Below are positions 14,648 to 16,505 of a stretch of DNA of 64,000 nucleotides, in pieces (position 1 is the stretch's first letter; every line of letters begins with the position of its first letter). The stretch is from Sulfurifustis variabilis (GTDB taxonomy: Bacteria; Pseudomonadota; Gammaproteobacteria; Acidiferrobacterales; Sulfurifustaceae). The position numbers and the translations under genes are program-made. The stretch is taken from NCBI RefSeq assembly GCF_002355415.1, contig NZ_AP014936.1, positions 1,612,001 to 1,676,000 of the forward strand, given 5' to 3'. The notes below the pieces were generated by a model. That model worked only from the letters and a program-made list of their open reading frames with translations. It was not told the DNA's origin and did no database searches.

Positions 14648-14728
14648 CAAATCGGCAGGACTGCCGATTTGGACGCCGTCGCGCGCGACGGCGCCCGAAG
14701 GGCGAGGGCGCAGGACGCGCCCGAGTCG
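14648..14728 (+). repeat. Type A four-hairpin element, copy 1
   Basis: An 81-bp element lies exactly between ggttcga and the tRNA-like tail. It contains four consecutive hairpins: a 10-bp stem caaatcggca/tgccgatttg with loop ggac, a 20-bp perfect palindrome cgccgtcgcg/cgcgacggcg, a cgccc-gaa-gggcg hairpin, and gggcgc/gcgccc. Copy 2 is at 16253-16333 with three or four base differences. Confidence 0.8.
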
Positions 14729-14747
14729 ATCTCTCCCTCTCCACCAT

Positions 14748-14778
14748 AAAAGAGTGAAGGGGCCGGCAGGCCTCTTTT
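14748..14778 (+). terminator. Degenerate terminator hairpin after repeat unit 1
   Basis: The outer stem aaaagag/ctctttt with an inner ggcc-rich part is a decayed relative of the perfect hairpin found after the tRNAs. It lies at the 3' side of the diiron oxygenase gene, which converges on it from the right, and the T-rich end is readable on both strands. Confidence 0.5.
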
Positions 14779-14853
14779 ACGTTGTATGGCGAGGGAACCC
14801 GACACGAATCGTCGGTTTCGGAGACTTTCACCTTTGGCGACAGGTCCCGTTCT

Positions 14854-15726
14854 TCATTTCCGCCATCGCACGTCGAAACCCCGTTCTCGCAACAGCTGCA
14901 GTGTCGGCCCCACGCAGGACTCGATGAAAGCGAGATGGTGCGCGTTCTTGCGCGCGGCGGCGAGCCAGCGGCGACCCGGACCGAGTCCGGCCAGCTCGTA
15001 CACCGGTGCGGCCGGGTAGTAGAAGACCGAAACGAACTGCCGGAGGAGACGCTGTATCACGGTGCGCACGCCGACGCTTCGCCACGGCCTCACGTCTTTC
15101 AATCTCTCGTCGATCAGCTGCCGGGCGTAGTTGATGTGACGGGCCTCGTCGATCATGTGCGCCGTGCTCATGTCGACGACAACCGGACACACGGCCTGGC
15201 CGTGACGCCGGATATAGCGGTTCAGCCGGTCGGGAATCTCCTCGCCGATCAGCACCGCGAGCCAGAAAGCCAGGGACTCGAGAGGGGCGTAGCGACCGAA
15301 GAGATGTGCGAGCGGCACCGACCGACGACAATGGGCCGGAATGTAGAGCCCGCTTCGTTCCATCAGCTCGAGAAACATGAGGCTGTGGCCTGCTTCCTCG
15401 CGCAACTCGTGCAGCCGGTACCGGAGCGCGACGCGATCGGGCGAGCGGTGGGCCAGCGAGCGCGCGATGCGCTCCATGAACATGCCCTCGAGCCAGAGAC
15501 CGGCTTCCAGGAAGTTGAGGAACTCGTACTGCGAAAGGCGAATGCGCTGCAGCTCGGGTAACTGCATGAACTCGGGCAGGCCATGGAGCGACAGGGCTTC
15601 CGGGGGCAACCAGTACTGGTCGACCCGCAGGCGGTCCCACCGAACGCGGCCCACCGGGTCGTGGTAGGGCGTGCTGGACTGCGCAAGGTGCGCCGTGAGG
15701 TCGTCCGACGAGGGAAAGCGGGACAT
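14854..15726 (-). CDS. AurF-like diiron oxygenase
   Basis: The 290-residue protein resembles the p-aminobenzoate N-oxygenase (AurF/CmlI) family, non-haem diiron enzymes that oxidise aryl amines. The ligand pattern can be followed: E74 in NFLEAGLWLEG, E111 and H114 in EEAGH, E163 in GEE, and H190, E194 and H197 in HMIDEARH. The spacing between the last five ligands equals that of AurF (E-x2-H, and H-x3-E-x2-H with a Glu 27 residues earlier). No biosynthetic gene cluster surrounds it, so the substrate is unknown. The gene sits alone between two tRNA-Ser loci and is bracketed by tRNA-tail repeats, which suggests it could be an acquired gene. Confidence 0.78.
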   Translation of the reverse strand: MSRFPSSDDLTAHLAQSSTPYHDPVGRVRWDRLRVDQYWLPPEALSLHGLPEFMQLPELQRIRLSQYEFLNFLEAGLWLEGMFMERIARSLAHRSPDRVALRYRLHELREEAGHSLMFLELMERSGLYIPAHCRRSVPLAHLFGRYAPLESLAFWLAVLIGEEIPDRLNRYIRRHGQAVCPVVVDMSTAHMIDEARHINYARQLIDERLKDVRPWRSVGVRTVIQRLLRQFVSVFYYPAAPVYELAGLGPGRRWLAAARKNAHHLAFIESCVGPTLQLLRERGFDVRWRK

Positions 15727-15822
15727 TCCTGTTCAAGGCCGTCGACGTCACGCTAGTCTAGCGTCGGGTTTTGCGGGGGTCCACGCATCGCCGCCGTCAC
15801 TCCTCGCGGCACATCGGCTTCA
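15727..15822. other. Spacer between the diiron oxygenase and tRNA-Ser(GGA) locus
   Basis: About 95 bp of divergent upstream space. It should hold the minus-strand promoter of the oxygenase gene, but I cannot pick one with confidence. Confidence 0.3.
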
Positions 15823-15849
15823 TTGCACGGCGATTGCACGTGGTTTAAC
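15823..15849 (+). promoter_or_regulatory. Putative promoter of the interrupted tRNA-Ser(GGA)
   Basis: TTGCAC at 15823-15828 and TTTAAC at 15844-15849 are 15 bp apart and are followed by a GC-rich discriminator-like stretch before the tRNA 5' end at 15865. The same two boxes and spacing occur before the intact copy, so the promoter was duplicated with the gene. Confidence 0.45.
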
Positions 15850-15864
15850 CTTCCGCCCCTTCCC

Positions 15865-16030
15865 GGAGAGGTGTCCGAGCGGTTTAAGGAGCACGCCTGG
15901 AAAGTGTGTGTACGGCAAAACCGTACCGAGGGTTCGACAAAATCGCCGGGAGCGATTTTGGACGCCGCGCAGCGGCGGCCCCGAAGGGGCGAGGCGCAGG
16001 GATGCGCCGGGCAATCCCTCCCTCGACACC
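15865..16030 (+). pseudogene. Broken tRNA-Ser(GGA) with a 76-bp insertion in the T loop
   Basis: The first 73 bases (15865-15937) are identical to the intact tRNA-Ser(GGA) at 16085, including acceptor 5' strand, D arm, anticodon loop ctggaaa and variable arm. After ttcga of the T loop a 76-bp type B element intervenes (15938-16013), then atccctc resumes. The acceptor 3' strand reads cctcgac instead of CCTCTCC and there is no encoded CCA, so the acceptor stem cannot close. It is best read as an inactivated tRNA gene whose role is covered by the intact duplicate. Confidence 0.88.
15938..16013 (+). repeat. Type B four-hairpin element, copy 1 (inside the tRNA pseudogene)
   Basis: The 76-bp element has the same hairpin order as type A with different sequence: caaaatcgc/gcgattttg with loop cggga, cgccgc-gca-gcggcg, gcccc-gaa-ggggc, and ggcgca-ggga-tgcgcc. 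The gaa loop of hairpin three and the lengths of the stems are kept while paired bases change. It is inserted after position 58 of the tRNA (ttcga) in the T loop. Confidence 0.82.
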
Positions 16031-16042
16031 TCTTCGCCTTAA

Positions 16043-16069
16043 TTGCACGGTGCGTGCACGTGGTTTAAC
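16043..16069 (+). promoter_or_regulatory. Putative promoter of the intact tRNA-Ser(GGA)
   Basis: TTGCAC (16043-16048) and TTTAAC (16064-16069), 15 bp apart, precede the tRNA start at 16085 by 15 bp, with a C-rich discriminator typical of stable-RNA promoters. Confidence 0.45.
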
Positions 16070-16084
16070 CTTCCGCCGCTTCCC

Positions 16085-16175
16085 GGAGAGGTGTCCGAGC
16101 GGTTTAAGGAGCACGCCTGGAAAGTGTGTGTACGGCAAAACCGTACCGAGGGTTCGAATCCCTCCCTCTCCGCCA
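16085..16175 (+). tRNA. tRNA-Ser(GGA)
   Basis: A complete 91-base class II tRNA with encoded CCA. The acceptor arms GGAGAGG/CCTCTCC pair fully, the anticodon stem cacgc/gtgtg carries loop ctggaaa with anticodon GGA (reads UCC and UCU), the variable arm stem gtacgg/ccgtac is long, and the T arm is gaggg-ttcgaat-ccctc. It is the restored partner of the broken copy at 15865. Confidence 0.96.
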
Positions 16176-16178
16176 TAC

Positions 16179-16214
16179 AAAAGTGAAAGGGGCCACTCGG
16201 CCCCTTTCACTTTT
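16179..16214 (+). terminator. Terminator hairpin after tRNA-Ser(GGA)
   Basis: The same perfect 16-bp stem with actc loop as at 14574, beginning four bases after the CCA and ending in TTTT. Its exact identity after two different tRNA-Ser genes indicates that the tRNA tail and terminator spread as one unit. Confidence 0.85.
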
Positions 16215-16252
16215 GTACGGAGGGGGCGGCCCGATGAGAACCCTCGGTTCGA

Positions 16253-16333
16253 CAAATCGGCAGGATTGCCGATTTGGGCGCCGTCGCGCGCGACGGCGCC
16301 CGAAGGGCGAGGGCGCAGGACGCGCCCGAGTCA
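16253..16333 (+). repeat. Type A four-hairpin element, copy 2
   Basis: It differs from copy 1 at a few bases (loop ggat in hairpin one and ggcgcc before hairpin two), none of which breaks a stem. Confidence 0.82.
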
Positions 16334-16355
16334 ATCCCTCCCTCTCCGCCATACA

Positions 16356-16391
16356 AAAAGTGAAAGGGGCCACTCGGCCCCTTTCACTTTT
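16356..16391 (+). terminator. Terminator hairpin after repeat unit 2
   Basis: Third perfect copy of the 16-bp stem and actc loop, placed five bases after the tRNA-like tail of unit 2. If the upstream terminator leaks, a short RNA holding the type A element and tail would end here. Confidence 0.8.
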
Positions 16392-16429
16392 GTAAGGAGG
16401 GGGCGGCCCGATGAGAACCCTAGGTTCGA

Positions 16430-16505
16430 CAACATCGCCGGGAGCGATTTTGGACGCCGCGTAGCGGCGGCCCCGAAGGGGCGAGGCGCAGGGATGCGCC
16501 GAGCA
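16430..16505 (+). repeat. Type B four-hairpin element, copy 2
   Basis: It is nearly identical to the copy inside the tRNA pseudogene (c for a in the first stem, gta for gca in the second loop, gagca for gggca at the end), showing that the same element lies both inside a tRNA gene and in the tail array. Confidence 0.82.

What the first reader, a model, noticed from the sequence alone, without database searches (positions are those of the whole stretch)
14648..16505. A four-hairpin element in two diverged types with conserved architecture, always at the same T-loop site
Four copies (14648-14728, 15938-16013, 16253-16333, 16430-16505) lie between ggttcga and atc(c/t)ctccctc. Types A (81 bp) and B (76 bp) differ in sequence but both have four consecutive hairpins in the same order, with paired changes that keep stems (caaatcggca/tgccgatttg against caaaatcgc/gcgattttg) and a constant gaa loop in the third. 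Compensatory change argues for selection on structure, either as RNA or as folded single-stranded DNA during transposition. The strict site choice resembles tyrosine-recombinase attachment at tRNA T loops or a small site-specific mobile element without its own protein.
Basis: partly seen in the sequence, partly recalled or inferred. Interest (0 to 1): 0.82.

Follow-up and report, generated by a model that had tools for sequence, protein, structure and literature searches.

The report
Wandering hairpin repeat in tRNA loops
The four copies belong to a small, protein-less four-hairpin DNA repeat found in many gammaproteobacteria, which has slipped into loops of tRNA genes and into other repeats, and whose tRNA-linked copies resemble the known but poorly understood RtT small RNA of E. 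coli.

Summary
In detail: four copies (two types) sit in T loops of tRNA-Ser genes or gene fragments, with real paired changes. Model R1, seeded with 8 copies of the window genome, finds 17 there (10 in T loops). R2, from relatives' copies, matches 129 of 369 genomes of the class, with 24 of 25 pairs covarying. The window copies match two Rfam families below cut-off: RtT (35 bits, cut-off 45) and AaHKsRNA22 (30 bits, cut-off 39.8). A relative's copy passes the RtT cut-off (58.5), and E. coli carries annotated RtT sRNAs behind a tRNA-Ser at the same 177-bp spacing. So the array is RtT-like. The element also sits in anticodon and D loops, tmRNA, ERIC, other palindromes, a phage gene, and another copy's third hairpin. 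Filled and empty sites (E. coli ERIC with or without 78 bp; RtT units with or without 76 bp) show gain or loss at G^AA without target duplication. Of 271 sampled sites, 48 are T-loop sense, none antisense. What moves it is unknown: RAYT transposases are commoner in bearers but absent from 30 of 129. Integrases were not tested. GGA loops resemble CsrA sites (recalled). Best reading: a non-autonomous hairpin element, some of whose tRNA copies became RtT RNAs.

The parts
14480..14569 (+). intact tRNA-Ser (CGA), parent of the first repeat unit
   Evidence: ARAGORN, Rfam tRNA 64.1 bits
14574..14751 (+). first 178-nt repeat: terminator-like hairpin, antisense tRNA 3' half with TGAG in place of TTCG, copy 1, tRNA 3' half
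   Evidence: the repeat finder D1, sequence
14648..14728 (+). four-hairpin element, copy 1 (type A)
   Evidence: R1 37.8 bits, not in the R1 seed; DNA fold z -4.25
15865..16040 (+). dead tRNA-Ser (GGA) copy, split in its T loop by copy 2; its 3' end reads as reverse complement of its 5' end
   Evidence: D2 duplication with 16034-16157, spacing 220; Rfam tRNA 17.1 bits, E 3.8, over the 5' part only; not found by ARAGORN
15938..16013 (+). four-hairpin element, copy 2 (type B)
   Evidence: R1 95.4 bits, but it is one of the 8 R1 seeds; AaHKsRNA22 30.1 bits at 15928-16025, below its 39.8 cut-off
16085..16175 (+). intact tRNA-Ser (GGA)
   Evidence: ARAGORN, Rfam 53.8 bits
16179..16356 (+). second 178-nt repeat unit (96% identical to the first); 16199-16251 is a 79% ungapped reverse complement of 16142-16194
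   Evidence: D1 and I3
16253..16333 (+). four-hairpin element, copy 3 (type A)
   Evidence: R1 37.4 bits, not in the R1 seed; DNA fold z -5.41
16356..16533 (+). third 178-nt repeat unit, 177 nt after the second, 61% identical to the first because it carries type B
   Evidence: D1
16381..16523 (+). RtT-like unit aligned end to end to the RtT model (positions 1-130)
   Evidence: RF00391 35.1 bits, E 5.5e-05, below gathering 45
16430..16505 (+). four-hairpin element, copy 4 (type B)
   Evidence: R1 95.0 bits, but it is one of the 8 R1 seeds; AaHKsRNA22 28.0 bits

Best explanation
The four copies belong to a non-autonomous four-hairpin repeat (core mostly 65-83 nt) spread through Gammaproteobacteria (shown). 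It lies at G^AA sites, among them loops of tRNAs, tmRNA and other palindromes, and is gained or lost there without target duplication (shown for an E. coli ERIC and for RtT units of Enterobacteriaceae; inferred elsewhere). In the window it sits in the T loop of duplicated tRNA-Ser 3' ends, in repeat units of the RtT kind: a reverse complement of the tRNA 3' half, then the element, then the tRNA 3' half. Such a unit is probably transcribed with the tRNA and released as a small RNA, as reported for RtT in E. coli and Actinobacillus (inferred from relatives). Movement probably happens through a folded single strand acted on by an enzyme supplied in trans (inferred; enzyme unknown). The sense-only T-loop copies are best explained by retention as RtT-type RNA (inferred).
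For: Copies: 17 in the window genome at E<=0.01, 8 of them the R1 seeds; 24 of 60 genomes, the window's own included; 129 of 369 class genomes, three of them the own or seed genomes; 45 of 299 phylum genomes, own included; 43 named stretches, among them Klebsiella, Citrobacter, Erwinia, Xanthomonadales and Thioalkalivibrio. Covariation. RtT link: end-to-end subthreshold match; a relative's copy (L202) is both an R1 hit and an RtT match of 58.5 bits, above cut-off; Atlantibacter RtT 56.7 and 51.3 and Franconibacter AaHKsRNA22 42.8, above cut-offs; E. coli has two annotated RtT sRNAs 177 bp apart behind a tRNA-Ser, where R2 gives 19.8 bits. Filled/empty sites: ERIC without and with 78 bp at GAGCG^A, composite in 630 of 5426 E. 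coli genomes; RtT units without and with 76 bp at CCCG^AA, both kinds in Atlantibacter; empty host palindromes in 6 of 8 genomes searched. Site: the base before the leading A is G in 175 of 242. T loops: 48 sense, 0 antisense of 271.
Against: The window copies miss both Rfam cut-offs. No transcription data for this organism. Only 18 of 48 T-loop copies have the TGAGAA-type motif of RtT upstream (8 of 222 others), so not every T-loop copy is an RtT unit. Stand-alone copies show no bias to the coding strand (12 clean intergenic cases: 3 >>, 3 ><, 1 <>, 5 <<; ORF overlaps 26 sense, 45 antisense, many ORFs probably spurious). Hairpin-loop targeting is not general: flank complementarity at 105 other sites barely exceeds shuffles (4.09 against 3.92, 10 of 200 as high). 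Identical copies in G291 and G171 ride inside larger repeats. The filled/empty pairs could be loss rather than gain. Six of 271 sites have direct repeats of 5 or more against 1.8 by shuffling, maximum 6, so occasional duplication is possible.
Confidence: 0.62

Rival explanations
1. REP-like element moved by a RAYT (Y1 transposase) in trans.
For: Y1_Tnp occurs in 99 of 129 element-bearing class genomes against 130 of 240 others (cross-table checked, Fisher p 1.8e-5) and in 14 of 16 chosen bearers; tandem and inverted pairs recall BIMEs.
Against: 30 of 129 bearers lack Y1_Tnp, among them G342 (11 hits) and G343 (12); G007, G013 and G015 (33, 16 and 19 copies) lack it too. 24 Y1 loci show only two weak element matches, E 0.014 and 0.28. 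GTAG or CTAC within 6 nt of an end in 8 of 271. Genome size and kinship confound the enrichment.
Confidence: 0.15
2. Structured RNA that is copied through RNA: the RNA inserts into RNA hairpin loops or is reverse transcribed.
For: 48 sense, 0 antisense T-loop copies; by my reading the cut is 4|3 in both the 7-nt T loop (TTCG^AAT) and the anticodon loop (CTTG^AAA); a tandem GA motif is reported in RtT (PMC7657543, passage).
Against: Antisense copies exist in tRNA-Gln anticodon arms (L004, L182) and in a D loop (L055); the element is also in ERIC and other palindromes. No reverse transcriptase was searched for.
Confidence: 0.12
3. Mobile CsrA/RsmA binding site: GGA loops of hairpins 1 and 4 titrate or guide CsrA, and selection spreads the copies.
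For: H1 loop YNGGA in 241 and H4 CA(N)GGA(T/C)G in 200 of 271; both in 183 against a mean of 0.27 in shuffled copies. CsrA matches in 119 of 129 bearers against 199 of 240 others (Fisher p 0.017). Likeness to the CsrA consensus is recalled.
Against: 10 of 129 bearers lack a CsrA match, in part perhaps incomplete genomes; no coding-strand bias; the E. coli RtT units behind tRNA-Ser lack the GGA loops (by eye).
Confidence: 0.15
4. No mobility: tRNA 3' ends and hairpins multiply by template switching, tandem duplication and gene conversion.
For: Snap-back layout of the units (I3), 177-bp tandem arrays, duplicated tRNA-Ser; identical copies inside larger repeats.
Against: Same element in unrelated hosts (phage terL, ERIC, palindromes) and clean filled/empty pairs of 76 and 78 bp.
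Confidence: 0.12

Closest known systems
RtT RNA (Rfam RF00391), E. coli
   Same: Behind a tRNA gene, tandem units 177 bp apart, GATGAGAACC, GGTTCGA, hairpins, CGAGTAATCC and tRNA 3' end in the same order
   Different: Window copies score 35 against a cut-off of 45; they keep all four hairpins with GGA loops that the E. coli units behind tRNA-Ser lack; the element also lives outside tRNA contexts
AaHKsRNA22 (Rfam RF02902), Aggregatibacter sRNA
   Same: Same four hairpins in order; also matched by a copy not beside a tRNA found by ARAGORN (Franconibacter L259)
   Different: Window copies 30.1 and 28.0 bits against 39.8; filed in Rfam as an sRNA gene
YPAL / RU-2 repeat of Yersinia
   Same: GACAAA near the start, CAAGGATG and CATGGATG stretches, targets at or next to dyad symmetry, filled and empty sites (PMC2759123 and PMC2229807, passages)
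   Different: 168 bp, target duplications of 3-26 bp; relatedness not tested with the models
ERIC / IRU
   Same: Small non-coding repeat of enterobacteria; it is a host of the element (the ERIC core was recognised from memory)
   Different: Different sequence, 127 bp, target duplications and TA ends (PMC2229807, passages). ERICs with internal inserts of about 70 bp are recalled from the literature and may be this element (not verified)
GTAG REPs with RAYT
   Same: Hairpin repeats in tandem and inverted pairs (PMC3733652, passages)
   Different: No GTAG tag as a rule (8 of 271), four hairpins, no clear copy beside Y1 genes

Membership tests
RtT (RF00391) | score at or above gathering 45 bits | tested here: not met
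   window best 35.1, own genome best 40.3; relative L202 reaches 58.5
RtT (RF00391) | behind a tRNA gene and ending in its 3' end | tested here: met
   for copies 1, 3 and 4; copy 2 is in a nearly whole dead tRNA
RtT (RF00391) | TGAG/CGA (tandem G-A) motif before the element | tested here: met
   gatgaga(a/c)cc before copies 1, 3 and 4, absent before copy 2; 18 of 48 T-loop copies overall
RtT (RF00391) | tandem units of about 178 bp | tested here: met
   177 between units 2 and 3; E. coli units start at 1224 and 1401
RtT (RF00391) | released as a small RNA | not testable with these tools
   no RNA data
AaHKsRNA22 (RF02902) | score at or above 39.8 bits | tested here: not met
   30.1 and 28.0
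GTAG REP / RAYT | GTAG tag at one end | tested here: not met
   GTAG or CTAC within 6 nt of an end in 8 of 271
GTAG REP / RAYT | RAYT gene flanked by the repeat | tested here: not met
   2 weak hits in 24 Y1_Tnp loci of 8 genomes
Tyrosine-recombinase att site | tRNA 3' end restored next to an integrase gene | not tested
   no integrase search made
MITE with target duplication | target-site duplication | tested here: not met
   direct repeats of 5 or more at 6 of 271, 1.8 expected; none seen

The most novel reading that the evidence does not exclude
One class-wide, transposase-less hairpin element, cutting in at G^AA through a folded single strand, underlies RtT, AaHKsRNA22, the insert in E. 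coli ERICs and perhaps YPAL; the RtT sRNAs are domesticated T-loop copies, and its two GGA loops make it a portable CsrA-binding RNA.
Probability: 0.25. Interest if true: 0.82.

Novelty: new variant of a known kind. Interest (0 to 1): 0.6.

Why it matters
RtT has been known from E. coli tRNA operons since 1991 (as cited in PMC4986893), without, as far as my searches show, an account of where it comes from or why it repeats the tRNA end. Seeing it as a mobile hairpin with a G^AA site links two Rfam families, an insert in ERIC and scattered repeats, and gives polymorphic sites in E. coli at which movement and the missing enzyme can be tested. It also suggests a route by which a repeat becomes a tRNA-processed small RNA.

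Tried and rejected
RAYT mobilisation: Y1_Tnp loci carry no clear element, though Y1_Tnp is commoner in bearers. Hairpin loops as the general target: the crude flank test was near chance for 105 other sites (10 of 200 shuffles as high) and weak for all 139 sites outside T and anticodon loops (5 of 200), so only G^AA is claimed. G-T shortage as proof of DNA-level selection: dropped because tRNA acceptor stems are as low. Coding-strand bias: inconclusive. CsrA co-occurrence: slightly enriched but not decisive, since csrA is in 318 of 369. Apparently identical transposed copies in G291 and G171: carried by larger repeats. TG1 against SW07096 at bsmA-yjfN: the alignment was not clean enough to use. 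Ten paper searches listed no paper that I could see to join these families; they cover open-licence PMC papers only, and I read passages, not whole papers. The original RtT, ERIC and YPAL papers were not seen.

Rows dropped before counts: duplicate flanks and copies with short flanks; copies with more than 3 non-standard pairs and the closing pair of hairpin 4 (277 distinct copies considered, 273 kept). The 12 and 16 genomes chosen for Y1_Tnp and the 100 + 20 fetched stretches were picked from strong hits, so site proportions are not unbiased. Per-genome copy numbers are capped (13 to 150 candidates scored per genome). The 10 of 17 T-loop count was made by eye.
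Full report
What is there. The region holds two intact tRNA-Ser genes (CGA 14480-14569, GGA 16085-16175) and three 178-nt direct repeats (14574-14751, 16179-16356, 16356-16533; the second 96%, the third 61% identical to the first; 177 between the last two). A tandem duplication (15814-15937 and 16034-16157, spacing 220) left a second tRNA-Ser(GGA), dead because copy 2 splits its T loop. 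Behind each intact tRNA and its terminator-like hairpin the sequence runs back as a reverse complement of the tRNA 3' half (16142-16194 against 16199-16251, 79%, ungapped) with TTCG changed to TGAG, then comes GGTTCGA, the element, and the tRNA 3' half again.

Structure. RNA folds exceed dinucleotide shuffles for copies 1-3, not clearly for copy 4; DNA folds do for all four. Model R1 from eight copies of the window genome, copies 2 and 4 among them, finds 17 copies there at E<=0.01 and 22 at E<=1; 8 of the 17 are its own seeds. Aligned to it, 138 copies from relatives show 96.8% of cells paired and 23 of 25 pairs with changes on both sides. Model R2, built from those 138, gives 99 copies in 65 further loci, 97.5% paired and 24 of 25. 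The alignments are fitted to the models; shuffles and slid partners stay far lower. G-T pairs are 79, A-C 47 and other mismatches 67 of 5942; in 57 tRNAs T stems have 6.43% G-U, acceptor stems 1.28%, and no mismatch. I read this as a hint, not proof, of DNA-level pairing.

Spread. R1: 24 of 60 genomes, the window's own included, up to 39 matches in one genome. R2: 129 of 369 genomes of the class, 105 of 274 genera, three of the 129 being the own genome or genomes that gave seeds; 45 of 299 of the phylum, 28 of them labelled 'same phylum', outside the class. Counts per genome are capped by the tool. Blast finds the element on 16 plasmid records (14 Pantoea, 2 E. coli) and in five records of the phage collection, some of them bacterial contigs; in the Mu-like phage PhiKM it lies at the start of the annotated large terminase gene.

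Sites. By my reading, 10 of the 17 own-genome copies are in T loops and two more in other tRNA arms. Of 271 unique flank pairs 48 are T-loop sense by pattern, none antisense; 9 matched the anticodon pattern, of which one (L110) is really a T loop. A few further T-loop copies escaped the pattern (for example L254, and L210 behind tmRNA), all sense. Antisense copies do occur elsewhere in tRNA genes (L004, L182, L055). A leading A is present in 242 of 271; the base before it is G in 175 and C in 59. 93 copies, duplicates dropped, out of 293 hits, duplicates kept, lie within 600 bp of an intact tRNA or tmRNA, 81 of the 93 on its strand. The loop rule is not general: complementarity of flanks at 105 other sites is barely above shuffled. 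Only 18 of 48 T-loop copies have the TGAGAA-type motif upstream, against 8 of 222 others.

Filled and empty sites. At E. coli yeiS-preT some strains have nothing, some an ERIC-type repeat (core recognised from memory), some the repeat with a 78-bp element inside at GAGCG^A; the composite is in 630 of 5426 genomes. In Klebsiella, Atlantibacter and Franconibacter a 76-bp element is inside the third hairpin of an RtT unit, at CCCG^AA, while another Atlantibacter unit and the E. coli unit lack it. The palindrome GTCATTCCGGC-N4-GCCGGAATCCAG, of which near-identical forms carry an element in L148, L166 and L177, exists empty in 6 of 8 genomes searched. Direct repeats of 5 or more flank 6 of 271 copies, 1.8 expected. 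Gain and loss cannot be told apart from these pairs alone.

Known families. Rfam at its cut-offs does not name the window copies. Below them, RtT aligns from end to end at 16381-16523 (35.1 bits) and AaHKsRNA22 over copies 2 and 4 (30.1, 28.0). At cut-off: RtT in Atlantibacter (56.7, 51.3), AaHKsRNA22 in Franconibacter (42.8), RtT in L202 of a relative (58.5) over the same DNA as an R1 hit, and RtT twice behind an E. coli tRNA-Ser (46.7 each), annotated there as RtT sRNA (the tRNA is serW by recalled name). R2 scores these E. coli units 19.8 (E 0.028), so I read them as a diverged form. Because the window copies fail the cut-off I call them RtT-like and not members. PMC4986893 (passages) reports RtT homologues next to tRNA genes in Actinobacillus, seen on Northern blots, and cites E. 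coli work on release from tRNA operons and the stringent response. PMC7657543 (passage) reports a tandem GA motif in RtT, which fits the TGAG/CGA pair. YPAL/RU-2 of Yersinia (PMC2759123, PMC2229807; passages) shares a start, GGA stretches and dyad targets. PMC3733652 (passages) describes GTAG and CGTC repeats; near an end these tags or their complements occur in 8 and 39 of 271.

Mechanism. Shown: conserved hairpins, G^AA sites, clean filled/empty pairs, sense-only T-loop copies in the sample. Inferred: movement through a folded single strand with an enzyme in trans, and retention of sense T-loop copies because they give a tRNA-processed RNA. RAYT is possible but not needed for presence: Y1_Tnp is in 99 of 129 bearers against 130 of 240 others, yet 30 bearers have none, and Y1 loci carry no clear copies. 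The strict GGA in two loops (both in 183 of 271, 0.27 by shuffling) suggests a binding protein; CsrA is a candidate by recalled consensus only, its gene is slightly commoner in bearers (119 of 129 against 199 of 240), and 10 of 129 bearers lack a CsrA match.

Verdict. A real, structured, widespread element; its tRNA form resembles a known RNA type, while its identity as a G^AA-directed hairpin repeat that unites several named families is not described in the papers that my ten searches listed.

Noticed in passing
15865-16040: Dead tRNA-Ser(GGA) whose 3' end (CGACACCTCT) is a reverse complement of its own 5' end, as if a copying strand had folded back.
   Followed up: partly
16142-16251: Snap-back layout: tRNA 3' half, terminator hairpin, reverse complement of the tRNA 3' half; similar layouts behind tRNA-Arg and tRNA-Gln of the same genome and in the E. 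coli RtT units.
   Followed up: partly
16604-16740: SRP RNA and a dnaX-like gene next to the array; Luteimonas L250 also has the SRP RNA beside tRNA-Ser(GGA) and two elements.
   Followed up: no
L275 548-622: Element at the very start of the terminase large subunit gene of Mu-like phage PhiKM; the same sequence occurs on an E. coli plasmid record (L276).
   Followed up: partly
G195:C70 57796-58207 and G285:C61 4876-5270: Element about 160-185 bp downstream of csrA on the same strand in two genomes, perhaps through a csrA-tRNA-Ser-tRNA-Arg gene order (recalled).
   Followed up: no
L279 1641-1668: CRISPR-DR4 Rfam match close to the E. coli RtT units, between them and clpA.
   Followed up: no
L072 1501-1737: Relative with two element copies of 103-104 nt in which hairpin 2 is replaced by a long AT-rich hairpin.
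   Followed up: no
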